Assembly: GCA_017979445.1 (NCBI GenBank)
Contig: CM030719.1
Span: 1,240,001 to 1,304,000, forward strand
Origin: Akebia trifoliata
Taxonomy: Eukaryota > Streptophyta > Magnoliopsida > Ranunculales > Lardizabalaceae
Reading direction: 5' to 3'
DNA: 64,000 nt
Under the pieces are notes generated by a model that saw only the letters and a list, made by a program, of their open reading frames with translations, was not told the DNA's origin and made no database searches. Position 1 is the first letter of the stretch. Each line of letters begins with the position of its first letter. The position numbers and the translations under genes were made by a program. Below, in pieces: positions 4,400-64,000 of this stretch.

Positions 4400-4850
4400 C
4401 TGAGGTGGCATGGCGCCAGCAGTTATTAAGGAAATCAGAAGCTTGCTTAGAATCAGATTCATCCAGGAAGGTATCTACCAGTGGATAGCAAACATTATTG
4501 TGGTACCAAAGAAGGATGGGAAGGTAAGGGGTTTGCATCGACTATACCATCCCAAATAAAGTATTTATGAAAGACAATTTTCCCCTACCAACAATCGACC
4601 GACAAGTAAAGGTTGTTGTTAATGAATGAGCAGTTGATATATAACTAGATCTCATTGGTATTATAAAATCAAGAGAAGTCAGCATTTACCAAAGAGTAAG
4701 GAATGTTCTACTTCGAGTAATGTCATTCAAATTGAAGAATGCATTAACCACTTAGCATAGGATGATGACCAATTTTTTTAAAGATATGCTTCAGACACTA
4801 TGGAGGTCTATGTCGACTATTTTCGCATTTGAAAAAGGTGTATTATTTGC
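4400..4850 (+). mobile_element. Ty3/gypsy reverse-transcriptase remnant
   Basis: Conceptual translation, with frameshifts, gives recognisable Ty3/gypsy RT blocks. There is an EI..LL..GFI-like helix, then ANIIVVPKKDGKVR (RT motif 1). KDNFPLPTID follows, then MSFKLKNALTT (degenerate MPFGLKNAGAT) and FKDM....MEVYVD (the catalytic YVDD region). Stops and frame changes are frequent, so it is a dead fossil. The same fragment recurs at 9885-10221, 27915-28190, 42485-42905 and 56630-57015, mostly at the same distance 3' of a gene copy. It therefore inserted before the gene family amplified. Confidence 0.75.
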
Positions 4851-10222: not shown

Positions 10223-12385
10223 CCACCTCAGTATGTTTTCTATTTATGATTTTTGATCTGTTGCATGGACTACATTCTAGGAAGTCATGGATACCTTGTT
10301 GATTCTTCTCACTCAATTCCCTTACCCATATGCTTCTTGCAATAGCTACAAAACTCCCTGTAGATCTCACCACTTCAATGCCTTCTGCTCATGATCAACT
10401 ATCCAAACTTACTAGCACTGTCTTGACATGCATCTCCACGGGTTTTTTATTTCCTTCACTTGGAGCCCAAAGCCCTTATGAACCCCTTTCCAACATGGAC
10501 TCTATGACCATCTTTTTAATAGCCATTGTTGTCAATGTTAGTATACAAATGGCTACTAGGGTGATCTACACGTTCATTGTAGAACATGTTATTTTCTTGG
10601 CTTTTACCAATTGCATTATGGGATTCTACTTTAAGACTTCATTTTGGTACTGATGTTTACTTTGATGATGTTAAAGACCAACTCGAAAAGGGTGACCCTC
10701 GAAGTTTGGAGAACAAATGTATGATTCATCGAATTAAGTTGTTTTATGTCTAGTTATCGAAACAACCCCCAATTGTTTCTCACTGAGACTGAACCTGGTA
10801 TGACTGTGCGTGATTCCCATAATTTGCACAGGTGTTCTGTCACAAGCCGCACTTAGATCCCTTGTTCTTAACAATAAGAAGGAGTTTGGTAATGGAGTTG
10901 CGGATTATAAATGGTCAATATGAATGTGTGTTGTCACTCAGTTTCTCACCATCACAATAGGTTGTATAGGCTTTAGATGGCTTACTTTGTTGAGCAACAT
11001 TGAATTTGAAGAAAATTATTGTGTAATTGAAGTACCAAATAAACAGTATATCTAGGTTAAAATGCTTAAGACTGATTTTGAGTATCAAACTTGGCTCCAT
11101 TGTTTGGTTTTTTGAGATCACTTTTGTAACTCTATTGCCGTTTTTCTTCACCATGTTGGCAGCATATGTGATGAGAGTCACCAGAAAATGCTTTTGTAAA
11201 CTAAGAAATGGTCAAGCCACAGATTTAGTGAGAGAAGACAAGATTGATCAGGTGGATACGGAAGAAAAGTAAGGAGGATGTGAAGAGGTTGACCAAGAAA
11301 TATAACATCGATTCTCCAACTCATATGTTCCAACTCTTTAGCAAAACTAGTACTCTATATCATCAAGAGTTCTCTCTTGCTAACAAGCTTCAAGTTTCAT
11401 CAGACAATCAAATATCTTGTCTTTCAATTGTGCTTCTTGTAAGAATGGCCATTGTTTCACTGCCGGATTCCCTCAGTGCTTCTCTAGTTCACACCTAATT
11501 AAATGAAGCTTTTGAAATCATTTATTTCATCGACACAAAATGAATGCCGCAAATCTCCGTAACAAAGCTAAATGGATGATGGCAAAATATATATTGAAGT
11601 ATAACAAATGCATTAAATCTTCAGTAAAGAAACATTGTTCTGAAGTCGTTATGAGATCCATGGATGGAGGCACAATGTCGATGGACCAAGAGGTCAAATT
11701 AACGTCGAATTTTTCATTATCAATTTTTTTTTTCACCTTGCCGAAACTGTCAAATTAGTGAAGGATGGGAGAAATTTGACAACTCTAAGTCGTCAAATCT
11801 AGGAACATCAAGAATTTCGATGGTCCTAGACCATCAAAATTCAGTTTCTAAAATTCGTGGGCCTTGTCTTGTCAATTTTTTCTGTCGAAATTTCCAGTTT
11901 TCATGTAGCGAGGGTTTCAATCTCAATCTCATTTTGAGTTAGATGAAGCACTCGGGATTTTTGAAGAAATACCATTGGAACGCAAAATGATAAATTTTGT
12001 TGTATTTCATGATGTACATGCCATCGATGAATTTATCAGCAATCAACGAGTTACATGGCCACATAGAGCAACTATTTGTGAACATGTTACAGTTTTTATT
12101 CTCTCAACTCCGCGTGCCATACTCAAGCATGCTTTTGAGAGCCCCAGTGAACAATGTGAAGAAAGAGCCTGCAGGCTTTCTAGGAAATTCCTTAGCATAC
12201 TTGCACCATTGGAAGAAAATTTTCATTGGTCATTTCCTATTGGAACTGGTATCACTAGCTTGATAACTCCTCGAGGTCTTGCCAGAGATGCTCATGTTCA
12301 CCATATTGAACAATTGGGAGGCAATGCAGCCACACATATTTCTCTTCAAGTAGCTGAAGATTGTGAAATTCAAGAGCATGCTTGA
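10223..12385 (+). pseudogene. Copy 2 of the membrane-protein family, 5'-truncated and degraded
   Basis: Homology starts abruptly at ccacctcagtatgttttc, about codon 30 of the intact gene, and continues to the normal QEHA-TGA end. Several frameshifts are present: after TFIVEHV near 10600, around 10750-10810, near 11010 and near 11240. A 240-bp CACTA-type MITE splits the region coding for MRSMDGG|FQ at 11671. It is the most diverged long copy and groups with copies 4 and 7, sharing the long 3' UTR intron. It cannot encode the full protein. Confidence 0.85.
11671..11910. mobile_element. CACTA-type MITE inside copy 2
   Basis: 240 bp, beginning CACAATGTCG and ending CATGTAGCG, flanked by AGG on both sides (11668-11670 and 11911-11913). 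Intact gene copies read gatggagggtttc uninterrupted at this point, so the insertion and the 3-bp duplication are directly visible. Internal sequence matches the elements at 6520 and 44468. Confidence 0.8.
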
Positions 12386-24559: not shown

Positions 24560-24966
24560 TGCCTTAACGATGCAACTTCTTGGGCTTAAGTTTGAAAATG
24601 GCATATTTTGTGTGTAAAAAATAAGAAGATTTTGACTTGAGGTTGAAGACAAGGTCATTTACGTCATCTTAATTTTGTCCGTGACACAAGACCTTGGTCA
24701 AGCGAAATGACATCAGTTTGAAAACTCAGGGATTAATCTTTAATATTAATATAAAATCAAATGTTGGGTTCGTTGAGTGGGGAGGAAGGTTCAGAGGACG
24801 CGTAATTGACTTTGATTAAATAGAAATTTAGATAATATACAATGCACATGCATGAATCAAAATACACCCCAAAAATAATATAAAGTGGATAGTCCTTGTT
24901 AGATGTGTAAAAACTAAAAAGAAGACGACGACTTGCTTCTTGCTTGTTCGACCAAAAGAAAGGCAA
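24560..24966 (+). promoter_or_regulatory. Upstream region of intact copy 4
   Basis: It carries the family-specific upstream block (aacttcttgggcttaagtttg, ...gattttgacttgaggttgaag..., gaggaaggttcagaggacgcg) and an AT-rich tagaaatttagataatatac stretch about 130 bp before the ATG. It begins directly after the hAT-like element and its flank. The regulatory role is inferred. Confidence 0.45.
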
Positions 24967-27024
24967 ATGGAGAATCATTCAAGTTTGAATGTAACATCTG
25001 ATGATCACAATTATTCTTCTCCAATTCCCTTGATTGGCTTATATACAGCTGCAGCCACCTCGGTATGTTTTCTATTTATGATGTTTGATCTGTTGCATGG
25101 ACTACGTTCTAGGAAGCCATGGATACCTTGTCGATTTTTCTCACTTAATTCCCTTACGCTCACCCTTCTTGCCATAGCTACCAAACTCCCAGTAGATCTC
25201 ACCACATCAATGCCTTCTGCTCATGATCAAATATCTAAACTTACTGGCACTGTCTTAATATGTATCTCCATGGGTTTTTTCTTTCCTTCACTTGGAGCTC
25301 AGAGTCCTTATGAACGCCTTTCCAATATGACCTCCCTGACCATCTTTGTAATAGCCGTTATTGTCAATGTTAGCATACAAATGGCCACTGGGGTGATCTT
25401 CGCGTTCCTTGTAGAACATGTGATTATCTTGTCTTTTATGGCGCTTTTGCTAATTGCATTATGGGATTCTACTTTTAGACTTCATTTTGGTTCTGATATT
25501 TTCCTTGATGATATAAAAGAGCAACTTGAAAAGGGTACTGACCCTCAAAGTTCGGAGAACCAGTGTATGATTCATCGAATTAAGTTGTTTTACATGTCTA
25601 GTTATGGAAACAACCCTCAATTGTTTATCACTGATTCCGCACCTGGTATGACTATGTGCATAATACCCACAATTTGCATAGTGGTTCTGTTACAAGCTGC
25701 AATTAGATCCCTTGTTCTTAACAATAAGATGGAGTTTGGTTATGGAGTTTCTGATTATAAATGGTCAATATGGATGGTGGTTGTCACTCAGTTTCTTACC
25801 AGCACAGTAGGTTGTATGGCAATTGGCTTTAGATGGTACACTGTGATGAGCAACACTGACCTCGACGAAGAAAATGAATTTAGAGGACCAAATAAACATT
25901 ACTTAAATATTTTAGCTAGGTTAAAAGGCCTTAGATTTACTTCGAGTATCAAATTTGGCATTATTGTTTGGTCTTTTGAGACCATATTTGTAACTGCATT
26001 ACCTTTTTACTTGACTAAGTGGGCAGCATATGTGATGAGAGGCACTAAAAAATGCTTTATTAAACGAAAAATTGGTGAGACCACAGATTTAGTGAGGGAA
26101 CAACTATATTTGCATGAGACAACATTGATTAGGTGGATACAGAAGAAAAGTGAAGAAGATATGAAGAGGTTGATGGAGAAATATAAAGTCGATTTTCCAA
26201 CTCATATGTTTCAACTCTTTTGCAAAACAACTCCATCTCAAGAGTCCCTTTCTAACAAGCTTCGAGTTTCATCAGAGAATCGAATATCTTGTCTTTCAGT
26301 TGTGCTCCTTGTAAGAATGGCCATTGTTTCACTTCCGGATTCCCTCAGTTATTCTCTAGTTCACACCTTAGATGAAGCCTTCGAAATCATTTATTTCATC
26401 GACAAGAAAATGAATGCCGCAAATGTCTGTAACAAAGCTAAATGGATGATGGCAAAATATATGTTCAAGTATAACAAACGCATTAAATCGTCAATAAAGA
26501 AACATTGTTTGGAAGTTGTTATGAGATCTATGGATGGAGGGTTTCAATCTCAATCTCAACTGGTCTTGGATGATAAACTTTGGATTATTGAAGAAATGCC
26601 ATTGGAACCATATATGATAAATTTTGTTGTACGTGATGATGTACATGCCATCAATGAATTTATCATCAAGTGCCGACCGTGCGCATCAATCAACGAGTTA
26701 TACAGTCACATCGAACAACTATTTGTGGACATGTTACAGTTTTTCTTCTCTCAATTCTCACATGCCATACTCAAGCATATTGTTGAGAGCCCCAATGAAC
26801 AAAGCGAAGAAAGAGCAAGTTTTGCCTTGAAATTACTAAGCAAGGTTGCACCAATTGAGGACAAAGTTCATTGGTCATTTCCTATCGGAACTGGTATCAC
26901 TAGCTTGATAGCCCCTCATGGTCATTCCAGAGATGCTCACCGTATTGAACAACTGGAAAGCAATGCAGCCACTCATGTTGCTGTTCAGGTAGCTGAAGAT
27001 TGTGAAATTCAAGAGCATGCTTGA
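24967..27024 (+). CDS. Uncharacterised plant multi-pass membrane protein, intact (copy 4)
   Basis: An uninterrupted 685-aa frame in a single exon. The ATG at 24967 (MENHSSLNV) is chosen because the frame upstream has no ATG and the methionine is kept in copies 1, 5 and 7. Hydrophobic segments are near residues 22-44, 58-75, 92-108, 122-140, 142-166, 228-252, 266-288 and 329-355, suggesting about eight membrane passes. There is no obvious signal peptide. The last 330 residues are soluble and include a conserved QKKSEEDMKRLMEKYKVD segment, a VVLLVRMAIVSLPDSL segment and a C-terminal HWSFPIGTGITSLI motif. I recognise no catalytic motif or named domain; I believe the family is plant-specific and of unknown function. 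A 3' UTR intron (27054-27639) follows. It shares the one-residue TDP insertion at about residue 191 with copy 7, so these two form one subgroup. It is one of only two intact members here. Confidence 0.85.
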   Translation: MENHSSLNVTSDDHNYSSPIPLIGLYTAAATSVCFLFMMFDLLHGLRSRKPWIPCRFFSLNSLTLTLLAIATKLPVDLTTSMPSAHDQISKLTGTVLICISMGFFFPSLGAQSPYERLSNMTSLTIFVIAVIVNVSIQMATGVIFAFLVEHVIILSFMALLLIALWDSTFRLHFGSDIFLDDIKEQLEKGTDPQSSENQCMIHRIKLFYMSSYGNNPQLFITDSAPGMTMCIIPTICIVVLLQAAIRSLVLNNKMEFGYGVSDYKWSIWMVVVTQFLTSTVGCMAIGFRWYTVMSNTDLDEENEFRGPNKHYLNILARLKGLRFTSSIKFGIIVWSFETIFVTALPFYLTKWAAYVMRGTKKCFIKRKIGETTDLVREQLYLHETTLIRWIQKKSEEDMKRLMEKYKVDFPTHMFQLFCKTTPSQESLSNKLRVSSENRISCLSVVLLVRMAIVSLPDSLSYSLVHTLDEAFEIIYFIDKKMNAANVCNKAKWMMAKYMFKYNKRIKSSIKKHCLEVVMRSMDGGFQSQSQLVLDDKLWIIEEMPLEPYMINFVVRDDVHAINEFIIKCRPCASINELYSHIEQLFVDMLQFFFSQFSHAILKHIVESPNEQSEERASFALKLLSKVAPIEDKVHWSFPIGTGITSLIAPHGHSRDAHRIEQLESNAATHVAVQVAEDCEIQEHA

Positions 27025-31416: not shown

Positions 31417-31670
31417 TTGAAGTCAAACATTTTTTTAATAAAAACCAATGATGTATTGGTTATTTTGATATTTTGATATTTTTGGATAGTTACTATGGAT
31501 GGTTATTTTTAAATTTTGATATTTTTTTATAGTTAATTGGAATTATTATCTTGTTACCTAATCGAATATGCATGTTTTAACTTACTAAATAGATTGCATG
31601 TTTGAAAAATCTTTTTTTACAGCTTCAATTAATACCAACTTTTTTTAATTTTTCATTGTGTTTAGTGATA

Positions 31671-32925
31671 ATGACGCCAAAACAATGGTTGTTGATGAGA
31701 TTGGTAACATTACTTTTTATGCTTAAACTTAAAAATCATATGAATGTTGGACAAAGGTTGTGCACATCATCACTTTCTGGCAAGGCATATGTGCGAGAAC
31801 TTTTGGAAGGATCTTCAACACAAATGTACGAGATATTTAGGATGGAGAAGAATGCTTTTGTACAATTATGTCAATATTTTCGAGATAAAAATTGGTTAAA
31901 TGATAGTAGATATATAGACGTAGAAGAGAAAATGGCAATATTTTTTATGACAATATGTCATAATTGTCGGAATCGATTAGTAAAATATCGATTCCAACAT
32001 TTTGGAGAAACCGTAAGTAGGTATTTTCATGAAGTGTTGGATGCAATGATACAGTTTGCACGAGAGATAATAGTCCCCCCAGCATTTGACAAGCCAATAG
32101 GAGAAATTCGATCTCATGTACATTTGAGAGAAGGGTCATTTAAGGGTGCTGTCGGTGCTTTAGATGGCACACTAATTGATGCGCACATTCCGCTTGATCA
32201 ACAAGTCCCATTTAGAGGAAGGGGACAGGGAAAATGTTTTCAAAATGTAATGGCGGTGTGTGATTTTGATATGAAGTTCATATATGTGATGGCTGGATAG
32301 GAAGGAATTGCACATGACTCGAGGGTATTAAATGAGACACTACGTAACCCGATTAACAATTTTCCAATGCCTCCTCCAGGTATGTATTTTCAAATTATAT
32401 TTTTGAAATTAATCTTATAATCAATAATAAAAATTTTACATATGTTTTATATTTGTTGCAGATATGTATTATTTATGCGACGCTGCATACACACACACTA
32501 GAGGTTTTATGACTCCATATCGTAACACACGCTATTGGCTAAGAACATATCGAGGAACGCGTGCAATGGGTAGAAAGGAGAAATTTAATCATGCACACGC
32601 TCGATTAAGGAATGTCATTGAGAGGACCTTTGGTGTATGGAAAAAAAGATTCCCAATTTTGAACAGAATGCCTTCATATGATTATCACACTCAACGGGAC
32701 ATTGTTATTGCATGCATGGCAATACACAATTTCTTGCGTCGTGTTTCTCTCCATGATGAGTTGTTTCGACAATATGAAGTTGATGTCGACGAAGAGAGTA
32801 ATTCTTTAGTAGAATCCGAACCATCACATGATCCACCATGTTATAATGACATATTCTCATCGCAAGCACAAGCTGATATGATCACTTTACGTGATCAAAT
32901 TGCAATTCAACTAGAAAATGAATGA
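31671..32925 (+). pseudogene. PIF/Harbinger transposase (DDE_Tnp_4 type), one nonsense codon
   Basis: Exon 1 (ATG 31671 to 32379) and exon 2 (32462-32925) are joined by an 82-bp intron with a gtatgt donor and ttgcag acceptor. The N-terminal part has the helical region typical of plant PIF-like transposases (YVRELLEGSSTQMYEIFRM, then VEEKMAIF). The catalytic triad is visible: D in VGALDGTLIDAHIP, D in YYLCDAAYTHTRGF, and E in NVIERTFGVWKKRFPIL. The conserved GWEG motif is interrupted by TAG at 32298-32300 (W codon to stop). Apart from this lesion the frame is open, so decay is recent. In the intact state it would cut and paste elements with TTA/TAA targets. The start codon is uncertain, since an upstream 5' exon may exist. 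Confidence 0.85.
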
Positions 32926-39239: not shown

Positions 39240-39788
39240 CAAGGATTACTACAAGATATTGAGGACAAGAAAATTGAAGATTCTATCTCCTTCTAACATC
39301 AAGAACCAGATTACGATTTTTGGTGGGAGAAGAATAGATTTCCGTAGAAAAATAAATGATATTTTCCAACGCGTTAAAAGATAATAGATTGAAGAAGAGG
39401 TTGAATAAGTTAAAAATGATGCATCTTCTTGGTGTTGGCATATTTTCTAGGTAAAAAATAAGAAGATTTTGACTTAAGGTTGAAGACAAGATCATTTACG
39501 TCATCTTCTTTTTGTCTGTGATACAAGACCAAGGTCAAGGGGAATGACATCAATTTGAAAACATGAGGATTAATATCTAATATTGACAAAAACGCAGTGG
39601 CAGGAAGGTTGGTTGAGTGAGCAGGAAGGTTCTTAGGACGCGTTAATGACATTGATTAAATAGAAATTTATATAATATACAATTCATATGGACCAAAATA
39701 CATCCAAAAAATAATATAAAATGCATAGTCCTTGTTATATATGTAACAAGAAGAAGACGACTTGCTTGTTCAACCAAAAGAAAGGCAA
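39240..39788 (+). promoter_or_regulatory. Upstream region of intact copy 5
   Basis: Collinear with 1190-1781. It has the ttatataata TATA-like sequence at 39668-39677, about 115 bp before the ATG, then a leader ending agacgacttgcttgttcaacc. It is the best candidate promoter here, because the gene behind it is intact. Confidence 0.5.
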
Positions 39789-41846
39789 ATGGAGAATCAT
39801 TCAAGCTTGAATGTGACATCCAATGATCACAATTATTCTTCTCCAATTCCTTTGATTGGCTTATATACAGCTGCGGCCACCTCGGTATGTTTTCTATTTA
39901 TGATTTTTGATCTGTTGTATGGACTGCGTTCTAGGAAGTCATGGATACCATGTCGATTCTTCTCACTCAATTCCCTTACCCTCACACTTCTTGCAATAGC
40001 TACAAAACTCCCTGTAGATCTCACCACTTCCATGCCTTCTGCTCAAGATCAACTATCTAAACTTACTGGCACTGTCTTTATATGCATCTCCATGGGGTTT
40101 TTCTTCCCTTCAGTTGGAACCCAGAGTCACTATGAACGTCTTTCCAACATGGCCTCCCTGACCATCTATGTAATAGCCGTTGTTGTCAATGTTGCTATAC
40201 AAATGGCTACTAGGGTCATCTTTGTGTTCATTGTAGAACATGTCATAATCCTGTCTTGTATGGTGCTTTTGCTACTTGCATTATGGGATTCTACTTTTAG
40301 ATTTCATTTTGGTTCTGATATTTACCTTAATGCTGTTAAAGAACAACTGGAAAAGGGTGACCCACGAAGTTCGGAGAACGAATGTATGATTAATCGAATG
40401 AAACTGTTTTATGTGTCTAGTTATGGAAACAACCCTCAATTGTTTATCTGTGATTCTGCACCTGCTACGACTATGAGCGTGATTCCCATACTTTGCACGG
40501 TGGTTCTGTCACAAGCTGCAATAAGATCCCTCATTCTTAAAAATATGATGGAGTTCGGTTATGGAGTTTCGGATTATAAATGGTCAATATGGATGGTGGT
40601 TGTCACTCAGGGTCTTACCATAACGATAGGTTGTATAGCAATTGCCTTTAGATCGCTTACTGTGATAGGCAACATTGACCCTGAAGCAAAACATTACGTA
40701 AGAGGGCCGAATGGATATTATGTCCCTATTATAGCAAAGTTAAAAGCCTTAAGGCTAATTGTGAATATGAATTTTGGCCTTATTGTTTGGTTATCAGAGC
40801 ATATATTTGTAAACCTATTGCCTTTTTGCGTGGCTACGTTGGCAATAAATGTGATGAGAGTCAGTAAAAAATGCTTTAGTAAACAAAGAAATGGTGAAGC
40901 CACAGATTTAGTGAGACAAGGATTCTATTTGTCTGGAAACAGATTGATCAGGTGGATACAGAAGAAAAGTGAGGAGGATGTGAAGAGGTTGATCGAGAAA
41001 TATAAAATTGATTCTCCAACTCATTTGTTACAACTCTTTTGCAAAATTACTCCATCTGAAGAGTCACTTACTAACAAGCTTCAAGTTTCATCAGAGGACC
41101 GAATATCTTGTCTTTCAGCTGTGCTCCTTGTAAGAATGGCCATTGTTTCACTTCCGGATTCCCTCAGTACTTCTCTAGTTCACACCCTAGATGAAGCCTT
41201 CGAAATCATTTATTTCATCGACAAGACAATGAGTGCTGGAAATCTCTGTAACAAAGCTAAATGGATGATGGCAAAATATATGTGGAAGAAAAATAAATGC
41301 ATTAAATCTTCAGTAAAGAAACATTGTTCTGAAGTTGTTATGAGATCTATGGATGGAGGGTTTCAATCTCAATATCAATTGAAAGTATTAAATGATACAC
41401 TTGGGAGTATTGAAGAAATACCGTTGAAACCAGATATGATAAATTTTGTTGTACGTGATGATGTACATGCCATCAATGAATTTATCATCAAGTGCCGACC
41501 GTGCACATCAATCGACGAGTTATACGGTCACATCAAACAACTATTTGTGGACATGTTACAGTTTTTCTTCTCTCAACTCTCACATGCCATACTCAAGCAT
41601 ATTCTTGAGAGCCCCAATGAACAAAGCGAAGAAAGAGCAAGTTTTGCCTTGAAATTACTGAGCAAGGTTGCACCATTTGAGGACAAAGTTCATTGGTCAT
41701 TTCCTATCGGAACTGGTATCACTAGCTTGATAACCCCTCATGGTCAATCCAGAGATGCTCACCGTATTGAACAATTGGAAAGCAATGCAGCCACGCATAT
41801 TGCTCTTCAGATAGCTGAAGATTGTGAAATTCAAGAGCATGCTTGA
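39789..41846 (+). CDS. Uncharacterised plant multi-pass membrane protein, intact (copy 5)
   Basis: Uninterrupted 685-aa single-exon frame with the same architecture as the gene at 24967: eight predicted membrane segments in the first 355 residues, then a soluble C-terminal half ending AEDCEIQEHA. The start ATG is at the position shared with the other copies. It lacks one residue of the TDP segment but is one residue longer in the FQSQYQLKVLND region, so the total length is the same. It is closest to copies 1 and 6, sharing DPRSSENECMINRMKLFYVSS, the short 3' UTR intron and the 3' flank. Function unknown; the membrane location is predicted from hydrophobicity only. It lies in a 7-kb segment duplicated at 1.2-7.8 kb, where the homologous gene is dead, so this may be the working member of its subgroup. 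Confidence 0.85.
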   Translation: MENHSSLNVTSNDHNYSSPIPLIGLYTAAATSVCFLFMIFDLLYGLRSRKSWIPCRFFSLNSLTLTLLAIATKLPVDLTTSMPSAQDQLSKLTGTVFICISMGFFFPSVGTQSHYERLSNMASLTIYVIAVVVNVAIQMATRVIFVFIVEHVIILSCMVLLLLALWDSTFRFHFGSDIYLNAVKEQLEKGDPRSSENECMINRMKLFYVSSYGNNPQLFICDSAPATTMSVIPILCTVVLSQAAIRSLILKNMMEFGYGVSDYKWSIWMVVVTQGLTITIGCIAIAFRSLTVIGNIDPEAKHYVRGPNGYYVPIIAKLKALRLIVNMNFGLIVWLSEHIFVNLLPFCVATLAINVMRVSKKCFSKQRNGEATDLVRQGFYLSGNRLIRWIQKKSEEDVKRLIEKYKIDSPTHLLQLFCKITPSEESLTNKLQVSSEDRISCLSAVLLVRMAIVSLPDSLSTSLVHTLDEAFEIIYFIDKTMSAGNLCNKAKWMMAKYMWKKNKCIKSSVKKHCSEVVMRSMDGGFQSQYQLKVLNDTLGSIEEIPLKPDMINFVVRDDVHAINEFIIKCRPCTSIDELYGHIKQLFVDMLQFFFSQLSHAILKHILESPNEQSEERASFALKLLSKVAPFEDKVHWSFPIGTGITSLITPHGQSRDAHRIEQLESNAATHIALQIAEDCEIQEHA

Positions 41847-46195: not shown

Positions 46196-46928
46196 AGAAA
46201 TGATGTTAAAGAACAGCTTGAAAAGGGTGACCCATGAAGTTCGGAGAACGAATGTATGATTAATCAAATGAAATTGTTTTGTGTGTCTAGTTATGGAAAC
46301 AACCCTCAATTGTTTCTCAGTTATGCTGCATCTGCTATGACTATGGGTGTGATTTCCATACTTTGCACGGTGGTTCTGTCACAAGCTATAATTAGATCCC
46401 TCATTCTTAACAATACGATGGAGTTTGGTTATGGAGTTTTGGATTATAAATGGTCAATATGGATGGTGGTTGTCACACTACGTCATAATGCGCTAAAAAC
46501 GACTGTCCATGACAGTCGTTTTTGAAAAAACCGACTGCCCCTGCAGTCGGAATAGGGGTCGTTTTAAAAGGAGTGGTTTTTAAAATGCGACAGACAAAAA
46601 CAGTCGAAAAAAACGACTGTCCAGGACAGTCGGAAAAAAACGACGGTCTTCAACAGTCGGAAAAAACGACTGTCTTTAACAGTCGTAAAAAACGACGGTT
46701 TTAGACAGTCGTAAAACTGTTGTTTTTTCCGATTGCTAAAGACAGTCGTTTTTCTGAATTTATAATAATAAAAAAAAGATTCTGAATTTTCAATTTGAAA
46801 AAATGGATCATCACATTCATCACAAATATTCTTTCAATAATTTGGTATAAGAAAGGTGCTAAAATACAAAATACATCGTTCTTTCAAGTCTCACTTCAAT
46901 ACGATCTAAACATAAAAATACATATAAA

Positions 46929-47455
46929 CTACTGATTAAACTTAGCCACCGAATTATCATTGTCATTATCATCTTTGCTGCCACATGATTGAACTTTGCC
47001 ACCACCACCAGATCCATACTTCTTCCCCGACACGATCAACTGCAGCTTGTCGTAACCAACAAGCACACCAGCACCTGCAACTGCATGCAAGATGTTTGCC
47101 CCAGCACCCATAAAGAGGGACTTGGCCCTTTCATACTTGAGAATCAGAGAGAATGCATCCAATGAACTCTTCTACTTGATAACCTCTCCAAATGTCATCA
47201 TCATCCTTCGATGCACTGTATCAATAGGGTATGAGGCCAGCTCAGCCCCAATTGTGATCCCCATCCCACTAGAAAACTTGCTCGGAAGCTATCGTGCAAT
47301 CACCAAACACAATAGCACACATTGTCCAAACTGTAAACATATACATCCAATAATTACAAAAACCAAAATACTAATATTTCTTCTGTTTCTACTGACCTGC
47401 ATATCACCAACCAACAAAACTGGTTTTAGAGAATCATACATTCCAAAGTAGAGCC
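46929..47455 (-). pseudogene. Captured mitochondrial ADP/ATP carrier fragment
   Basis: Reading on the minus strand, an upstream exon (about 47455-47395) gives [19 protein letters not shown] ending GDMQ at a GT donor. After an intron, the next exon gives [20 protein letters not shown], then a stop in place of the usual Tyr (VIK-stop-KSSLDAF). It continues [20 protein letters not shown] and then [18 protein letters not shown]. This is the last mitochondrial-carrier repeat of the plant ADP/ATP translocase of the inner mitochondrial membrane. It includes the PX(D/E)TVRRRMMM signature, here changed to HRRMMM. The N-terminal two thirds are absent. Intron retention shows capture from genomic DNA, not by retroposition. 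It cannot make a working carrier. Confidence 0.9.
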
Positions 47456-47459
47456 CACG

Positions 47460-48240
47460 GTACACAATAGAAATTATCAGCACTTTCTATACACAGGTCT
47501 GACACGTTTGTTCTCTGCCCAAGCCAGTCTTGCTATATCTTTCACCATGGTTGTTCTATAATAAATAGGCTCTTCACATGCTAATGCCCTTAGCCCACAC
47601 CCATGTGTGGTCCTACATTGCTCTCTTAGGCATTTTGCAGCCCTTTGGATTCAATAAGTATTAACTTAGATTTATTTACATTTTCTTCTATTAGTTTTGA
47701 TATTATTGGCAAAGAAAACAAATGTTTCTAAAAAGTCAGTTTTGACCCCACCAAGGAGAGGTATATATATATTGGATGGTTCCTTGTTGCTTCCCAAACT
47801 TCATAAAGAATTGTGATAAATTGACTTGAAAAAAACTACTCGAATTTCACACATTGATTGTCTACTAAATCAGAGATTTTTTCTAGTGTATCTCAAGAAA
47901 AAAAAAAGATGAATGGTTCTGTGTACATGCCACATCAGCAAGTTAATTTTGAGTGGCTTTTTTTGAGTCAATTTATCACAACTAATTCAAACAAGCAACA
48001 TTACAATCAAGATAACTTGCTAACCTAGCAAATTTACAAGCCTTTCTAAAAATTGATTAAGATCAGATGAATCACAATCAGAAAACAGACAATGAATAGT
48101 TAAAAAAATAAAATAAAATCATTCATGTAAGTGAAATGGTAGCGATCCATTTGTTTCTATATGGTGCCTAAGTAAAAGCTTACAGGAGGGAGGACAAGCT
48201 TTGCTTCCAGATGTAGGATCTGCAGCTAGTACGCTGAGGA
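47460..48240. other. CACTA interior, unassigned
   Basis: On the minus strand a short frame near 47570-47500 reads MVKDIARLAWAENKRV and is not recognised. The rest is AT-rich with no visible homology. It may be intron or spacer between captured pieces. Confidence 0.3.
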
Positions 48241-48275
48241 GTGAAACCACAAAAGATGATTCCAAGAGGCCATAC

Positions 48276-48740
48276 CTGAAGGGCACGCACATACAGACCA
48301 GCTTTTTCACAAAGTTGTGCAACAAATAATTACCTTTGTTTAAGAGATATGTGAACTAAAGAGAATTACAAGAACTCTTTCAACAAATAATTACCTTTGT
48401 TTGAAGAAATGCATGTTCTGGTAAATTTGGTTTCAGGACATCCAACAGAAAGACTGTTGCCTCACGAATCAGGTTTCTCTGGAATAGAAAACAACAAAAA
48501 CAAAACAATCCCAAGTGCTATGTTATTCAAATATTGGAGCAGCTTGAATACATTTTTTAGATGGTTAAACAAATATGGAAGCACTCTGTTGTCCATCTAA
48601 TATTATAAAACCAACATAAGAAACTACATACGAGAGATGTACCTGAAGGAAGAGATCTGTGATTGTGTTGTAATCAACTGGACATCATCAGAGCAAAATT
48701 GACAGCTCCCTGTCATCCAGAAGAAGTTGCAAGTCATCCA
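48276..48740 (-). pseudogene. Captured clathrin heavy chain fragment (three exons)
   Basis: Exon a (about 48735-48643) reads QGAVNFALMMS, then with a deletion VDYNTITDLFLQ, ending at cttcag|gtacat. Exon b (48478-48395) reads [20 protein letters not shown], ending HAFLQTK, between ttccag and ggtaat. Exon c (about 48320-48276) reads AQLCEKAGLYVRALQ before cag|gtatgg. All three match consecutive parts of the clathrin heavy chain leg, the large structural subunit of the clathrin coat in endocytosis and Golgi traffic. A part between b and c appears lost. Exon a has lost the SQMEGGCP segment and its frame. Only a small piece of this protein of roughly 1700 residues is present, so it is non-functional. 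Confidence 0.9.
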
Positions 48741-49376
48741 CAAACCACAGAAAATGAGTTTTGGTAAAACATAAGCCACAAATAATGAAGAATACAGGAA
48801 AAGGCTCATCTTTTTTAGTATATGTCGCTTAGGTGGGATATGATGTGTTTATTCAGGGACTGAGCTGTTTTGCTTCTTGTGTTTGGCACTATTACATTCA
48901 ATGTTTACAAACACTGAGGTGTGAGGCAAGGCGCTCGGCTGATTAGTGCCTCGAGGCATAAGCACCTATTTGTTGGGGTACTACTTCATTCAGTTTGGGG
49001 CCAAATTAAAACTGAGCCAACATAGGTCGATAAATAAGAACCAGAACCAATTACTAATTTAGTAAAAATGAAATTCAATGCACGAAATGATCCATATTCA
49101 ATTCTTTTCATATCTTGGTAAATATCTTACTCTAGTAAAAACTGTACATAAAGAGGTTCAAGAATCCAAATTTAAGAAAGAGCAACATTGAACCTCATCC
49201 ATGATGAGTGATTTTATACTTTAAGCAACATTGAACCTCATCAGTTTCAACTATTGCGTCAAGCTTTACGAATTTGCACATTGTTTTACCATCACTATCT
49301 TTACTAGTGATACCCCATTTAAGAAAGAAAAAAACCCCATTCAATTCGACTGCCATTTGTAGCATGTGAAGGCATT

Positions 49377-49915
49377 TTATTCCTTAATATGAAATTGATG
49401 GTAACACTTCTTGAACATATAATGCCAATTTATCTCTAGAATTGAAACTGATGGTGATATCGTGTTGAAATTCAGCCAATACAAGAAACAAAATAGAAGG
49501 TAACTGGCCATAAAGATTATTGTGGTAGTAAGAAATGGGTCGTTCAAGAACCACTTGAAGATCCTTGTGAGAGGAAAGAGAGAATGGTGAATAGCATTGA
49601 AAAAACAAAGAGACACTCAAAAAAAGCTACAACTTAATCAGTTAGTTTCAAAGAAAACATACCCGGGAAAATAGGTCCTCCCTCATCCAGGGAACCAAAT
49701 ACTTCCATGGCCAGATATCCAACGTACTTACTCCATTACTTTTTGGGCGTATCCTTCCAGTCATTTGTGTTGCTGAAGTTAAGCTTGGATGCACTAGAAA
49801 TCTAGCTGCAACCTCCACTGAAAATTCACAAGTGCTAAAGACACGATCAACTGGGCTTCTAAGTATGGTTACCGCCTGAAGTTCTCTCCTTTGGTAGCCT
49901 GGACATCATGCTATA
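49377..49915 (-). pseudogene. Unidentified captured coding fragment, two probable exons
   Basis: On the minus strand, 49870-49665 reads RSPVDRVFSTCEFSVEVAAR, then FLVHPSLTSATQMTGRIRPK, then STLDIWPWKYLVPWMREDLF and a gggtatg donor. A second stretch (about 49575-49380) follows a cacaag acceptor and reads DLQVVLERPISYYHNNLYGQ, then LPSILFLVLAEFQHDITIS, and ends VLPSISY-stop. Codon flow and splice-like borders suggest real exons of a host gene. I do not recognise the family. They lie between the clathrin and L24 fragments in the same orientation. Confidence 0.5.
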
Positions 49916-50371
49916 GTCGTCATGAGTAACCATCAATCTGCAATTTGGTTTTCTGCATACAAAACCAGAAAAACTATTTACAGCTCTTTATAAAAGCCAA
50001 ATTAATCAAAGATCTATGGTTGAAGCAAAGCTTGACAGTGAAGGTAAAACAATGTGCAAATTCGGAAATATTATTTGCATTGGCACAGTCAATCAGAGAC
50101 CTTACCATACCATGTCCTACTTATTTAGAGCAAAAACACAGTCAGCAAAGCAAATGCAGATCGACGACTAGTTCAATAAAACAACAGAAAAACGATGTTT
50201 GATCAAGTAACTCATAACATCACTGATCCTACTCATTTAGCATGGTCGAAAAAGAAAAATATCATTATAGAACATACCCAAACAATCCTAACAGAAGAAA
50301 CATAGTGAATGACAAATGCAAGAAGTTAATAAAGCACAAAAAATATTTTAAGTACTACATAAGAGAAACAC

Positions 50372-50678
50372 CTTCTTATGTTGCTTCCTGTGCATGGCAG
50401 TCCAGGTAAGTTTTGATGGCTTCAGTCGGTTGTGGAAGTATCTCTTGCATTTTGAATTAGCGAACAAGAAGACCTAAGGTGATAAATCAGGTGAGATTTC
50501 ATCAATTTTAAAGGTAAGGTCAATAAGCTGAAATAGTGAAAAATAGAGATTAACATTGAATTGAAAAAAAAGAAAAAAACAAGAACCATTACCAAAGCTT
50601 ACCTGAGAATCAGCTCGAACGAATCTGATACCCCTACCAGGGAATATCTTGGCACCACTAAAGTGGCAAAGTTCAGTC
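50372..50678 (-). pseudogene. Captured ribosomal protein L24 (eL24) fragment, two exons
   Basis: Exon 50678-50603 begins right after a tttcag acceptor and reads [19 protein letters not shown], then VRADSQ, ending at tctcag|gtaagc. Exon 50473-50372 follows an acag-type acceptor (accttag) and reads [20 protein letters not shown], then [14 protein letters not shown], ending at aag|gtgttt. This is the N-terminal zinc-ribbon-like region of cytosolic 60S protein L24. The first coding exon (MVLK) and the C-terminal exon(s) are missing. Sequence and splice sites are nearly perfect, so the capture is recent or the fragment is little decayed. It matches the N-terminal half of the protein only. Confidence 0.92.
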
Positions 50679-50679
50679 C

Positions 50680-53600
50680 TGAAACACTGACACATCATTA
50701 AAGCTGCTGCTTTGTTTCAGGTGAGATTTGAAAGGAGACTAGCATAATGAAAGAAAAGGCAATTGCTACTAATTCAAGATGTGTGTTAAAACTAGTGAAA
50801 AAATAAATTAGCAGAAACAAAGACTTTCCTACAACTTTTATGGGAATTCTTTTTAACTAATCAATAATTTTTGTAGAACATGTACATACTGTGAACCAAA
50901 GTACATACTGTGAACCAAATTAAGAAAACCAAATGATAAAATTAGTTTGTAGGGACAAAAGGAAATAAAAAGAATAAAGCTTCCATAGATATCGTTATTT
51001 AACAACATAGTTTAGACTTGATCAATAAGAATTGGATAAAAGAGACCAAAGTGATTAGTAATACAAGATCACAATGTAATATTTTATCACATTTCAGCTT
51101 TCAACACAGCAACATTAGCATATTATTGATTATGCACTGGTGGAGCATAGTAAAGAACACTAAGAGGCCTTTGGGGCAGTAGCGAAGATTATAGAGGAAG
51201 TGGTCGCTATTAGTACTAGTGGCAAAACAGAAGGTCATGGCAGCAAGAGTAGTGGTGCCTATCCAGCCAAACCATCTAACCAAACCTAACAAGAATTGGT
51301 TAAATATACCTCCCTTGCCCAATGAATCAGCATCTTCATTGACACCTCTGTAAATGTTCCTTGCAAACCTTCTAAATTTTAGAACACCCTATACTTTTTT
51401 ACTCATTAGAAAACAAACTGGCTATAAAAATGTCAGATTAATAAACATGGCGCAGTTACATAACTCTGCCTTTGTAAGCATTAACCTTGCATTACTTGTT
51501 CTTTCACTTTGGAAACATTGAATGCAAAATCATTCTGATTATAAGAAAAATATATGAAATGTTCATGAACAAGGATCAAAAGCAAAATAAATCGAGAAAA
51601 TCTCCATACTAAAAAGGGGGTAAAGCTCTTAATGCCAAAAGTTTTTTTTTTTTTTTTTAAGATATCAAATCTTTCTTTTTAATAGCCTATGTAATTTTTG
51701 TTTTTAATCTACACATGCTGGTAGCATACATTATAATAAGCTGATGATATGAATTAAGAGAATCAAGCAAACTCTTCAATTGAACCGGATGTGACCCAAA
51801 GCATAGTGTCTAGGCTATGAGAGTTCGTTTGGAATTGGATTAGATCCCTTATACCAACAAGTGGATCTAAATCCAATCTAGTAACACTTGTATTGGATTC
51901 ATCTTACATCAAATCAGATTCAATAAACAATATGTATGAAATATAGATATACATCATATATCTAAATAAAATATATAACATCATTAATCTACATTTTAAT
52001 TCACCCGTTAATGGATTAGAAAATGATTGGTTCATATCAAATCCAAGCAGCTACATGATTGGGTCACAAATTGACACTCATTTGCATTTAAAATAAGGCC
52101 TAAAAATGTACAAAGGAAACGAAAAGCTTTAGCAAAGAAATAAAATTGGTCACTACGAACGAACAACTAAACTCACAATCCTAAGAAATATTGACTCTTT
52201 AATTTGGGTTTCCTTAACTCATCATGCACTAATAGTATGTATGAAAATGCCTAGGAGCAGAGTTCTAGGTTGAGATCATGAGAAAAAGAGATCTATATGG
52301 AGGTGTAAAATATCTAGAATAAGCGTATAAATGACTGAAAAAAATAGAAAAATAGTCATTAGGGAGCATTCATAGAGACAAGTTATAAAGTAAAATATAA
52401 CACAAGTTATAGTTACCTCTCCAAAAGCCTTGCACTATCAATAGTTAACAACAGAAATTCCAGCTCCAACAGTCCTACACATACACAAAAACATACATTT
52501 GCAAATTAATGCAAAATCCAATAATGTCAGTTAATAAAAAGGAAATAATGCAAATGGATATTAGTACCTACAAATGGGTTAAGCTTGGCGAAATTATAGA
52601 AAATGTCCGCAGAAAACCCAAAAAGAACTTGGGAAGCTCTTTCAAAGCTGGTTACTACAAACAGAACACACCTTACATATATAGCTCTCTCAATGTGGAT
52701 GATAAGAGTATATTAAGTATGGAAGTCATGTGGAAAACAAAATAATAATAATCAAAGTTTTTTTACATATGGAATTCATCATAGAACTCACAATATAGAA
52801 TGTGGGCAAAACAAGCAGGAAATAGTTAAGAACATGAAAATAATTAACACCATAAGCAATGATTTATAACTCTAGCTAGGATAGGAATGCACTAAGGGTC
52901 CCCTGTATGGAAACTCCAAAAAATGAAGAAAATAAGTCAAGAGTAATATTGTATGTTACATTTTCATCAATAAAATCAATCTTAGGAACCCAATATCATC
53001 CAAGTAGAGATGGTTCTAATCCATTATATGCATCAATTAAACAGAAAATAAAGTGGTTTGAATCTGAATCATTAGTATCTAGTCCTTCAAAATAATAGAT
53101 GTGACTGCATAGGATCATACATAAGGATACATGAAGAACAATACCAAAATATATAAACCAGAAAAGATCTTTCAATCTTAAGAGGCATTCCCTTCACACA
53201 GTTTTATAATGCCACTTGCTAACTTTTAGTAATCACAATTATTTATAAGGGAAGAAAAAGACCAAACCAAAAGCATTAAGGAAAACTATATGGAACCAAG
53301 ACTAATAAGTTAAGACTCAAATGAGTCCTTATCCCACGTCAAACAATGAGCAGATTTTCCTTCCAGCTAACTAACTCTTGAAGCTTTGGTGCAAAAGGTC
53401 ACCTTGTCCTACTATGACATAATGACGTAGCTCACATAAAATTGTTGAGAAATCCAAAAATGATTCCTCATCTCATAGTAGGTGGTGGTGTCGCACCAAA
53501 TAAACTTTTAAAGAGGCATGGGATGACAAACATAGATCTAATGAACACCATCATCTGGATACACATTATATAAGACCTAATGAACACGATCACATCTACA

Positions 53601-54160
53601 ACAATATATGGAGATATTCTATTCTATATGAATCAAAACACCAAAAAACTTAAAATCCTCAACAGAAAACTTTTTAAAATAAATCAATGGATCACAGATT
53701 TTACACTCAAAGTACTGGAAGAACAATCAAACAAAGAAGAATTATAACAAACAAGTTAGAATTATTATAACAAAGATATACATCAAATTGCAAGTAGAGA
53801 ACACAGATTAACTAAATCACAAGTACTCAAAAAGGTTCAAACACTACTAATTAGAGAGATCCAAAAAAGAAATCAAAATCAAACAATAGAAAAACACTAC
53901 TAATCAGAGAGATCCAAAAAGAAATCGACTCAAACAATACAAGTTATTGCATTAATTTGTTATTGCATTGCATCTATTGATAATACAAGTTTGCTAAAGA
54001 TGTTTTCCTCTGCTGAAATGTATTACTCTCTTTTCAAAACATTTTTCCATTCCACTATCTATACATTTGAGTTGTTCTTCTATTTATGTTTATCTATACA
54101 TTTGAATCCCTAAATTAATTATGGAAAATCTAAGATACAATAAAAAACTTTAACATACCT
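50680..54160. other. CACTA interior, mostly non-coding
   Basis: AT-rich sequence. One possible minus-strand exon at 51380-51310 reads FARNIYRGVNEDADSLGKG and ends at ggag|gtatat; the family was not recognised. A run of 17 T lies near 51643. The other open frames here (52509, 52907) look random. Confidence 0.35.
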
Positions 54161-54600
54161 GAAGATTCGATCACAAACGAAGCAAAGGGAGGCAGATCGA
54201 ACAAAGTCCTAAAACTTTTGATCAAACACCGATTGATTCTGCCCTAAAACTTGTAAATCGAATCTGATTGCGTCTTTAAAATCACAGATTCTTTGAGTGA
54301 GAGATCGAGCGAAGATCTTTCGATCAAACTCCGATCGATTTGTTTCTAAAAAAAATTTTCAATCGATTTGTTTCTAGAAAAAAAAAAAATAGCGAGAGCG
54401 AGAAGAACGAAGGAATCGAGAGAGGGCGAGAAGAGCGACGGTGTAGAAAGATAAGATCAGTCGAGTGAGAGTGAGAGTGATAGTGAGACTGAGAGTGTGT
54501 GAATGAGAGGAGAGAAGAACTTCGACAGTGGCGAAGACGAGTTCTGTAAATGAAGGTTTTGAAATTTTTTTATTTTTTTGGGTGGTTATTGGCACCCCAA
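54160..54600 (-). promoter_or_regulatory. Possible promoter / first exon of a chimeric minus-strand transcript
   Basis: Read on the minus strand this part is CT-rich like a plant 5' leader (ctctcgattccttcgttc...). It ends at a good donor (cgaatcttcag|gtatgttaaag, boundary about 54160). It lies just inside the right terminal repeats and upstream, on the minus strand, of all the captured fragments. That is where CACTA elements normally start transcription. The function is inferred. Confidence 0.4.
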
Positions 54601-55979
54601 CTTTTACATATTTCCATTAGTGCGTTGAAACGACGGTTTAACGACTGCTTCAAACTGTCGTAATTAACGACTGCCTTTAGCAGTCGTTTTTAGCGCAGTT
54701 CTGGTGTCGCCAAAACCGCAATATGGCGTAGTGTCACTCAGGGTCTTACCATAACGATAGGTTGTATAGCAATTGGCTTTAGATGGCTTACTGTGGCGAG
54801 CAACACTGACCTTGCAGAAGGACATTACGTAAGAGGGCCGAATGGAAATTATATCCCTATTATAGCAAGGTTAAAAGCCTTTAGGCTGATTGTGAATATG
54901 AATTTTGGCATTATTGTTTGGTTATTAGGGACTATATTTGTAACTCTATTGCCTTTTTGCGTGACTGTGTTGGCAACATATGTGATGAAAGGCAGTAAAA
55001 AATGCTTTAGTAAACAAAGAAATGGTAAAGCCACAGATTTAGTGAGACAAGAAGAACCCTATTTGTCTGGAAGCGGATTGATCAGGTGGATACAGAAGAA
55101 AAGTGAGGCGGATGTGTACAGGTTGATTGAGAAATATAAAATTGATTCTCCAAGTCATTTGTTGCAACTCTTTTGCAAAATTACTCCATCTGAAGAGTCA
55201 CTTACTAACAAGCTTCAAGTTTCATCAGAGAACCGAATATCTTGTCTTTCAGTTGTGCTCCTTGTAAGAATGGCCATCGTTTCACTTCCGGATTCCCTCA
55301 GTACTTCTCTAGTTCACACACTAGATGAAGCCTTTGAAATCATTTATTTCATCGACAAGACATGAGTGCTGGAAATCTCCGTAACAAAGCTAAATGGATG
55401 ATGGCAAAATATATATGGAAGAAAAACGAAAGCATTAAATCTTCAGTAAAGAAACATTGTTCTGAAGTTGTTATGAGATCTATGGATGGAGGGTTTCAAT
55501 CTCAATCTCAATTGAAAGTATTAAATGATACACTTGGGACTTTTGAAGAAGTACCATTGGAACCAGGTATGATAAATTTTGTTGTACGTGATGATGTACA
55601 TGCCATCAATGAATTTATCATCAAATGCCGACCGTGCACATCCATCAATGAGTTATACGGTCACCTTGAACAACTATTTGTGGAGATGTTACACTTTTTA
55701 TTCTCTCAACTCTCACATGCTATACTCAAGCATATTGTTGAGAGCCGCAATGAACAATGCCAAGAAAGAGCAAGTTTTGCCCTGAAATTACTAAGCAAGG
55801 TTGCACCATTTGAGGACAAAGTTCATTGGTCATTTCCTATTGGAACTGGTATCACTAGCTTGATAACCCCTCATGGTCATTCCAGTGATGCTCACCGTAT
55901 TGAACAATTGGAAAGCAATGCAGCTACACATATTGCTCTTCAGGTAGCTGAAGATTGTGAAATTCAAGAGCATGCTTGA

Positions 55980-62279: not shown

Positions 62280-62669
62280 TAACGATGGTGTTAAGCTTGA
62301 AAATGGCATATTTTCAACGTAAAAAATAAGAAGATTTTGGCTTGAGGTTGAAGACAAGGTCAATTATGTCATCTTCATTTTGTCCGTGATACAAGACCTG
62401 GGTCAAGGGAAATGAGATCAATTTGAAAACTTAGTGATTAATCTTTAATATTGATTCTAAATCAAATATAAAATAAAATGTTAGGTTCGTTGAGTGGGTA
62501 GGAAGGTTCATGGGACGCGTTATTAACTTCTATTAAATGGAAATTTAGATAATATACAATGCACATGCATGAACCAAAATACACCCAAAAAATAATATAA
62601 AATGGATAGGCCTTGTTATATGTGTAAAAAGAAGAAGACGACTTGCTTGTTCGACCAAAAGAAAGGCAA
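62280..62669 (+). promoter_or_regulatory. Upstream region of copy 7
   Basis: Homologue of the upstream regions of copies 1, 4 and 5, closest to that of copy 4 (same tagataatatacaatgcacatgcatgaa leader). Confidence 0.45.
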
Positions 62670-64000
62670 ATGGAGAATCATTCATGTTTGAATGCAACAT
62701 CCAATGATCAATACTATTCTTCTCCAATTCCTTTGATTGGCTTATATACAGCTGCTGCCACCTCGGTATGTTTTCTATTTACGATTTTTGATCTGTTGCA
62801 TGGACTGCGTTCTTTGAAGCCATGGATACCTTGTCGATTCTTCTCACTCAATTCCCTTACGCTCACACTTCTTGCAATAGCTACCAAACTCCCGGTAGAT
62901 CTCACCACATCAATGCCTTCTGCTCATGATCAGATATCTAAACTTACTGGCACTGTCTTAATATGTATCTCCATGGGTTTTTTCTTTCCTTCTCTTGGAG
63001 CTCAGAGTCCTTATGAACGCCTTTCCATTATGGCCTCCCTGACCATCTTTGTAATAGCCATTATTGTCAATATTAGTATACAAATGGCCACTAGGGTGAT
63101 CTTCGCATTCATTGTAGAACATGTGATTATCTTGGCTTTTATGGTGCTTTTGCTAATTGCATTATGGGATTCTAATTTAAGACTTCATTTTGGTTATGAT
63201 GTTTTCCTTGATGATATAAAAGAGCAACTTGAAAAGAGTACTGTCCCTCAAAGTTCAGAGAACCAGTGTATGATTCATCGTATTAAGTTGTTTTACATGT
63301 CTAGTTATGGAAACAACCCTCAATTGTTTCTCACCGATTCCCCACCTGGTTTTACTATGTGCATAATTCCACCAATTTGCACAGTGGTTCTGTTACACGC
63401 TGCAATTAGATCCCTTGTTCTTAACAATAAGATGGAGTTTGGTTATGGAGTTTCTGATTATAAATGGTCAATATGGATGATAGTTGTTACTCAGTTTCTT
63501 ACCATCACAGTAGGTTGTATAGCATTAGGCTTTAGATGGCTTACTCTGGTGAGCAACACTGACCTTGAAGAAGAACATGAAATTAGAGGACCAAATAAAC
63601 AGCATATCTATATTATATCTAGGTTATAAGGCTTAAAATTTACTTCGAGTATCAAATTTGGCATTATTGTTTATTATTTAGCGGTCATATTTGTAGGTCT
63701 AATGCCTTATTACTTGACTATGTGGGCAGCATATGTGATGAGAGGCACTTAAAAATGCTTTATTAAACAAAAAATTGATGAGACCACAGATTTAGTGAGA
63801 GAACAACTATATTTGCTTGAGACAACATTAGTAGGTGGATACAGAAGAAAAGTGAAGAGGATATGAAGAGATTGATGGAGAATATAAAGTCGCTTTTCCA
63901 ACTCATATGTTTCAACTCTTTTGCAAAACTACTCCATCTCAAGAGTCACTTTCTAGTAAGCTTCAAATTTCATCAGAGAATCAAATATCTTGTCTTTCAG
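62670..64000 (+). pseudogene. Copy 7 of the membrane-protein family, broken, runs off the window
   Basis: It starts at the shared ATG (MENHSCLNATSND) and reads for 319 codons through seven predicted membrane segments. It stops at TAA 63627-63629, where the intact gene has AAA (ARLKGLR). A second nonsense change (ACT TAA for ACT AAA) lies near 63749. Single-base deletions occur near 63829 (acattagtagg) and 63882 (gagaatataaag). Closest to copy 4. The last third lies beyond the window. Confidence 0.8.

What the first reader, a model, noticed from the sequence alone, without database searches (positions are those of the whole stretch)
46476..54733. Gene-capturing CACTA element with pieces of at least three unrelated host genes
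The ends, the TCA target duplication and the subterminal repeats define the element to the base. Inside, fragments of ADP/ATP carrier, clathrin heavy chain and ribosomal protein L24 lie in one orientation with introns kept, and no transposase is present. CACTA elements that carry host gene pieces are known from plants, but this particular set of genes in one element is, as far as I know, undescribed.
Basis: partly seen in the sequence, partly recalled or inferred. Interest (0 to 1): 0.92.

Follow-up and report, generated by a model that had tools for sequence, protein, structure and literature searches.

The report
Jumping gene carrying six gene scraps
A plant DNA transposon without a transposase of its own carries copied scraps of at least six unrelated host genes, lined up in one direction; such elements are known, but this one keeps a readable scar of how one scrap was copied in.

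Summary
The element is real to the base: 8,258 bp (46476-54733), CACTACG...CGTAGTG ends, TCA duplication; two tandem paralogs of the target show the exact empty site. It is a non-autonomous, gene-carrying CACTA element (Pack-CACTA type). The three named genes are right, and their best donor loci lie on different contigs of the same genome: ADP/ATP carrier (C1, 93%), clathrin heavy chain (C8, 90-98%), eL24 (C10, 93-98%). Three more were missed: an ankyrin-gene 5' region (C12), a kinesin C-terminus (C2, 98%) and protein-tyrosine sulfotransferase (C6, 97%), plus a C16 piece and dispersed repeats. All six gene pieces lie on the minus strand, the direction of Transposase_21 frames near related ends. 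Sisters with their own 3-bp duplications share parts of the mosaic, some with different right halves. Forty close copies of the left end exist, this one included. The sulfotransferase piece fills a small break in the eL24 piece, beside a slipped repeat and an inverted eL24 snippet: a templated-repair scar. Overlaps at joins between donors are not above chance. The carrier piece is decayed. New member of a known kind.

The parts
46473..46475 (.). left target-site duplication TCA
   Evidence: empty sites at 2583 and 40590
46476..46753 (+). CACTA left end: terminal CACTACGTCATAATGCGC plus subterminal CGACTGTC repeats; 40 copies of its first 32 bases in the genome, this one included (up to 1 mismatch, 15 exact)
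46948..47469 (-). ADP/ATP carrier: end of one exon, an intron, the last exon and 3' end; donor C1:25961849-25962369, 93.1%. One in-frame stop, 1-bp exon deletion, splice acceptor CAG to CAC
47470..47652 (.). dispersed repeat (C13 and C3 copies 92-97%)
47659..47990 (-). non-coding 5' region of an ankyrin-repeat gene; donor-like locus C12:28573877-28574208 (90%); includes a palindromic MITE-like stretch
47992..48245 (-). C-terminus and 3' end of a gene with a DUF3490 domain (kinesin-7, name recalled), donor C2:3329934-3330187, 98.4%; the 21-aa piece in the window has no Pfam hit by itself
48243..48963 (-). clathrin heavy chain exons and introns, donor gene C8:4734469-4735332; internal deletions and a 22-bp back-and-forth duplication
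48963..49228 (-). eL24 gene, 3' flank block (donor C10, 93%)
49224..49299 (.). repair scar: exact repeat of 49181-49199 at 49224-49242, then inverted copy of an eL24 snippet at 49265-49299
49298..50020 (-). protein-tyrosine sulfotransferase exon and intron, donor C6:4960757-4961475, 96.7%
50019..50691 (-). eL24 gene: 3' flank, two coding exons and the intron between them, with a 538-bp internal deletion at 50333-50336; donor C10:28826874-28827187 and neighbourhood, 95-98%
50690..50724 (.). remnant of a 114-bp piece of C16:22258733-22258846; 583 bp present at this point in the C7 sister are missing here
50725..52373 (.). interior shared with sisters; donor not determined
   Evidence: the genome search for 50690-52240 did not complete
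52374..53315 (.). dispersed repeat, 89-99% identical to many places
53548..54733 (-). CACTA right end with subterminal repeats; last 636 bp shared with many copies
54734..54736 (.). right target-site duplication TCA

Best explanation
A non-autonomous CACTA (En/Spm) transposon of Pack-CACTA type, moved in trans by a transposase from related autonomous elements. SHOWN: ends, duplication, empty site, no recognisable transposase inside, pieces of six genes whose donor-like loci lie on six contigs, sister copies with separate 3-bp duplications. INFERRED: it grew by serial capture. At least one capture, the sulfotransferase piece, came from repair of a break inside the element by copying from an unrelated locus, with a slipped and a fold-back copy beside it. 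Larger modules were exchanged between family members, so that one left half is joined to different right halves. Accumulation in one direction, that of the transposase in related elements, may reflect tolerance or use of sense exons in a transcript from the right end. The carrier piece no longer encodes a working part.
For: Structure. No transposase hit: 28 of 28 open frames. Donors. Sisters: both ends were read in 5 of the 16 regions fetched, and all five have 3-bp duplications: gta, gta (one segmental duplicate), cat, tat, act. Scar: the eL24 copy breaks at donor position 3948 and resumes at 3972, filled by an exact 19-bp repeat of nearby sequence, an inverted eL24 snippet and 723 bp of the sulfotransferase gene; a 22-bp back-and-forth copy inside the clathrin piece. 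Overlaps of 2 bp or more at 6 of 10 joins against 18% in random joins, binomial 0.004, but see against. Transposase_21 frames without stops about 8 kb from family left ends, in the minus direction, at C7:20080565/20088488 and C15:9789705/9780966.
Against: The overlap excess comes from rearrangements within one donor: 4 of 4 within-donor joins have 2 bp or more, but only 2 of 6 joins between donors (chance 0.30), or 3 of 8 with the sulfotransferase joins (0.17); the test is post hoc, from BLAST borders, and its null joins different donors. An exact-match version gave fewer overlaps because of later mutations. One left half with different right halves fits fusion of neighbouring elements. Six of six in one direction has a two-sided chance of 1 in 32, and the ankyrin piece is non-coding. 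No expression data. The two transposase-bearing loci have left ends only 83-84% alike over about 236 bases, are not among the 40 close left ends, and their right ends were not read. About 1.6 kb of the interior has no donor.
Confidence: 0.8

Rival explanations
1. Capture by fusion of neighbouring insertions (the published Pack-CACTA model): two family members land close together, their inner ends are lost, and the pair moves as one element with the chromosomal DNA between them.
For: Common left half with three different right halves (the C14 copy parts at C7-sister position 4393, the C6 copies at element position 5755). Carrier-bearing and ankyrin-bearing family members exist separately. At C148 one family member lies directly beside the clathrin piece of what is probably another. 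Published for plant Pack-TYPE elements (PMC8903248 section 9; PMC13317346 section 7). Overlaps at joins between donors are not above chance.
Against: No CACTACG or CGTAGTG lies between 46948 and 50724, though inner ends could have been deleted; the sulfotransferase piece sits inside the eL24 piece with an inverted snippet and a slipped repeat, which simple fusion does not produce.
Confidence: 0.35
2. Assembly of captured exons into a functional chimeric gene: a transcript from the right end splices the gene pieces and makes a selected product.
For: All six gene pieces in one direction, that of transposase frames near related ends; eL24 splice sites and frame kept; chimeric transcripts are documented for soybean Tgm-Express1 (abstract and passages of PMC1947982).
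Against: Carrier last exon: 14 amino-acid changing and 3 silent codon changes, one stop, one 1-base deletion; it differs from the donor by 7.0% and the intron by 7.9%, though the 73 bases of the exon before by only one base. The 1-base deletion and the stop are in the four of five tested copies that keep that part. The splice acceptor is lost in this copy.
Confidence: 0.05
3. Several nested transposons that only look like captured genes.
For: Part of the interior is dispersed repeats (47470-47652, 52374-53315) and a palindromic MITE-like stretch.
Against: Six pieces match host gene loci at 90-98% with introns or flanks.
Confidence: 0.03

Closest known systems
Tgm-Express1 of soybean (CACTA; Zabala and Vodkin 2007, PMC1947982; abstract and passages seen)
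   Same: CACTA-type ends, pieces of five unrelated host genes with exons and introns, inserted in a gene
   Different: Other genes; inserted in an intron, ours in the coding part of an apparently truncated gene copy; chimeric transcripts not tested here
Tpn1 family of morning glory (passages of PMC5105172; Kawasaki and Nitasaka 2004 seen only as a reference)
   Same: Family of CACTA elements whose interiors are replaced by captured host genes, conserved ends, few transposase-bearing copies
   Different: Terminal sequences not compared; the host species here is unnamed
Pack-CACTA / Pack-TYPE elements (PMC8903248, passages and section 9; Catoni 2019 not held)
   Same: TIR element, host coding DNA from several loci, no transposase
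   Different: Proposed capture by fusion of neighbours; here one internal templated-repair scar points to copying for at least one piece
Pack-TIRs of animals and the gap-filling model (PMC8277862, passages)
   Same: Captured filler from elsewhere inside a TIR element
   Different: Animal elements with microhomology at breakpoints; here joins between donors show no excess

Membership tests
CACTA (En/Spm) superfamily | CACTA terminal inverted repeats | tested here: met
   CACTACG...CGTAGTG at 46476 and 54733
CACTA (En/Spm) superfamily | 3-bp target-site duplication | tested here: met
   TCA with exact empty sites; 3-bp duplications in the five sisters whose two ends were read
CACTA (En/Spm) superfamily | subterminal repeats | tested here: met
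CACTA (En/Spm) superfamily | related elements with TnpD-like transposase (Transposase_21) | tested here: inconclusive
   left ends (83-84% alike) about 8 kb from open Transposase_21 frames at two loci; right ends of those not read; not among the 40 close left ends
Pack-CACTA (Pack-TYPE) | no transposase gene inside | tested here: met
   0 of 28 open frames of 60 aa or more match one
Pack-CACTA (Pack-TYPE) | contains coding DNA of host genes | tested here: met
   coding pieces of five genes and the 5' region of a sixth
Pack-CACTA (Pack-TYPE) | mobilised and multiplied as a unit | tested here: met
   sisters at separate sites with own duplications; movement itself not observed
Functional exon-shuffled gene | open reading frame under selection | tested here: not met
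   carrier piece decayed; the other pieces not tested for selection
Functional exon-shuffled gene | transcribed and spliced | not testable with these tools
   no RNA data

The most novel reading that the evidence does not exclude
This CACTA family grows mainly by templated DNA repair: breaks inside the element are filled by copying stretches of host genes with template switching and fold-back, and only fillers in the direction of the element's own promoter persist. The family would be a natural, datable record of template-switching repair in a plant and a test of whether orientation is filtered by transcription. (Lowered from 0.25 to 0.2 after one search showed no overlap excess at joins between donors.)
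Probability: 0.2. Interest if true: 0.6.

Novelty: new member of a known kind. Interest (0 to 1): 0.42.

Why it matters
How DNA transposons pick up host genes is still argued: fusion of neighbouring insertions, or copying during break repair. This family offers donors and sisters in one genome, so that joins can be read. The scar inside the eL24 piece speaks for copying in that case; the swapped halves and the plain joins between other donors fit fusion or exchange. Both can be tested on the same copies.

Tried and rejected
Fragments as neighbours elsewhere: rejected, donor genes are on different contigs. Clathrin search with one frame, stops as X, found nothing; joined exons did. C148 as the clathrin donor gene: doubtful, since a family left end lies 2.6-3.3 kb away in matching orientation, so it is probably another captured copy. 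A carrier tree sets 12 carrier-bearing elements apart from the donor, the paralogs and one further element (L014) with support 0.905; other splits are weak, so a single capture is likely but not proved. Microhomology as proof of template switching between donors: rejected. Weak Pfam hits (NDUF_B6, Cutinase, YjeJ and others, E 0.01 to 0.07, below cut-off) rejected. A guess that the host might be apple was used for one paper search and dropped; no species is claimed. The donor of 50690-52240 was not found: that search did not complete each time.

Full report
WHAT IS THERE. The element spans 46476-54733 (8,258 bp, 34.5% GC). Its ends read CACTACGTCATAATGCGC... and ...TGGCGTAGTG, flanked by TCA on both sides. 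Subterminal repeats of the CGACTGTC/GACAGTCG type crowd the left end and recur at the right. The target is a copy in a tandem gene array that appears truncated at its 5' end; the same 33 bases without the element occur unbroken at 2583 and 40590 (array). The insertion and its duplication are thus shown by empty sites.

NO TRANSPOSASE. The 28 open frames of 60 aa or more in the element were scanned with Pfam; none gave a transposase. Only the eL24 frame passed a curated cut-off.

CAPTURED GENES. (1) ADP/ATP carrier, 46948-47469, 93.1% to a gene at C1. (2) 5' region of an ankyrin gene, 47659-47990, 90% to C12; the ankyrin repeats are in the neighbouring donor frame. (3) The C-terminus of a gene with a DUF3490 domain in the donor (E 5.4e-39), 47992-48245, 98.4% to C2; that this domain marks kinesin-7 proteins is recalled. 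(4) Clathrin heavy chain, 48243-48963, to the gene at C8, 90-98% in three blocks plus an exact 22-base one. (5) eL24, 48963-49228 and 50019-50691, to the gene at C10, 93-98%; four other eL24-like places of the genome are only 72-73% alike. (6) Protein-tyrosine sulfotransferase, 49298-50020, 96.7% to C6; the donor frame finds 138 proteins, most without a name, several named so in Humulus, Forsythia and others; Pfam alone gave nothing for this piece. A remnant of a C16 locus follows at 50690-50724. Dispersed repeats fill 47470-47652 and 52374-53315. The donor of 50725-52373 is unknown. All six gene pieces lie on the minus strand.

THE FAMILY. The first 32 bases occur 40 times in the genome with at most one mismatch, 15 of them exact, this copy included; the reversed control gave none. 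Of 16 regions fetched, five could be read from end to end; two of these are one segmental duplicate (99.9%). All five end in CACTACG/CGTAGTG with duplications gta, gta, cat, tat, act. The C7 sister is 95-98% alike over nearly the whole length, lacks 671-809 and has 583 bp more; the C2 sister lacks 2404-4901 of the element; the C6 sisters lack 3295-4247 and have another right half; the C14 sister shares 1-4249 and has yet another right half. Further elements share the left end and the carrier piece with other cargo. C59:51168-57390 looks like another sister from its two ends.

HOW THE PIECES CAME IN. Inside the eL24 piece the copy stops at donor position 3948 and resumes at 3972. Between them lie an exact 19-base repeat of nearby sequence (49181-49199 again at 49224-49242), an inverted copy of an eL24 snippet (49265-49299), and 723 bp of the sulfotransferase gene, which rejoins with a 2-base overlap. 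This is the pattern expected when a break is filled by copying with slippage, fold-back and a template switch. The same stretch is in the C7 and C14 sisters, so it predates their spread. The clathrin piece has a 22-base back-and-forth copy. As a wider test, 6 of 10 joins have overlaps of 2 or more bases; random joins of the donors do so in 18% (binomial 0.004). Split up, this comes from rearrangements within one donor (4 of 4); joins between donors show 2 of 6, or 3 of 8 with the sulfotransferase joins, which chance explains (0.30 and 0.17). The swapped right halves show that exchange or fusion between family members also took part. After this check I lowered the main confidence from 0.85 to 0.8 and raised fusion from 0.3 to 0.35.

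STATE OF THE CARGO. In the last carrier exon this element has 14 changing and 3 silent codon changes, one stop and a 1-base deletion; that exon and the intron differ from the donor by 7.0% and 7.9%, the 73 captured bases of the exon before by one base. The splice acceptor reads CAC in this copy; among the five end-to-end sisters three read CAG and in two the site was not found; of five further carrier-bearing elements three read CAG and two CAA. eL24 exons keep frame and splice sites in this copy. I see no sign of a selected product in the carrier piece; the other pieces were not tested for selection.

MOBILITY. Transposase_21 frames were scored at 150 of 590 candidate places; the 14 control genomes gave none. 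Two frames without stops lie about 8 kb from a family left end and point in the element's minus direction: C7:20088488-20089120 and C15:9780966-9781598 (left ends; a 366-aa open stretch at C7 was read). These left ends are 83-84% alike to this one and are not among the 40 close copies. A third frame, at C4 with one stop, lies near a family right end in the same direction. These are candidates for the source of transposase, not proved ones.

COMPARISON. Soybean Tgm-Express1 with five gene pieces, Tpn1 of morning glory and Pack-CACTA elements are the same kind. Published work favours fusion of neighbours for plants and gap filling for single-copy animal Pack-TIRs; the Chenopodium CACTA paper points to Rubin and Levy's abortive gap repair. 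The titles listed (25 of 120; 15 of 631; 4 of 5; 5 of 5) show no CACTA element with this cargo or such a scar; I saw listings there, not full texts, and the library holds open-licence papers only.

Noticed in passing
window 1755-3647, 10330-12385, 24940-27024, 39762-41846, 54793-55979, 62643-63629: Tandem array of a gene family of about 694 aa with no Pfam match (one intact copy scanned); copies about 80-94% alike in DNA.
   Followed up: partly
window 32464-32925: Part of a PIF/Harbinger-like transposase (DDE_Tnp_4, E 1.6e-12; superfamily name recalled); the open frame just before it (31602-32300) has no Pfam match.
   Followed up: no
C148:32396-35727 (L043): A family right end lies directly beside a clathrin piece that is itself probably inside another family element: nested insertion in the same family.
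   Followed up: partly
L046, L047, L048, L049: Other family members carry the ankyrin piece (with ankyrin-like coding sequence beside it in L046) joined to blocks of the sulfotransferase-derived stretch.
   Followed up: partly
L009 and L010 (C6:25.72-25.75 Mb): Two 8.6-kb elements 99.9% identical with the same 15-base flanks, 19 kb apart: probably a segmental duplication carrying an element.
   Followed up: no
window 50333-50691 against 48963-49228: The coding part of the eL24 piece is 97.5% like the donor, its 3' flank blocks only 93-95%: two dates, later conversion or different constraint on the donor.
   Followed up: no
window 52151-52157: A CACTACG motif inside the element's right half, on the plus strand; may be chance or the relic of an inner end.
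   Followed up: no
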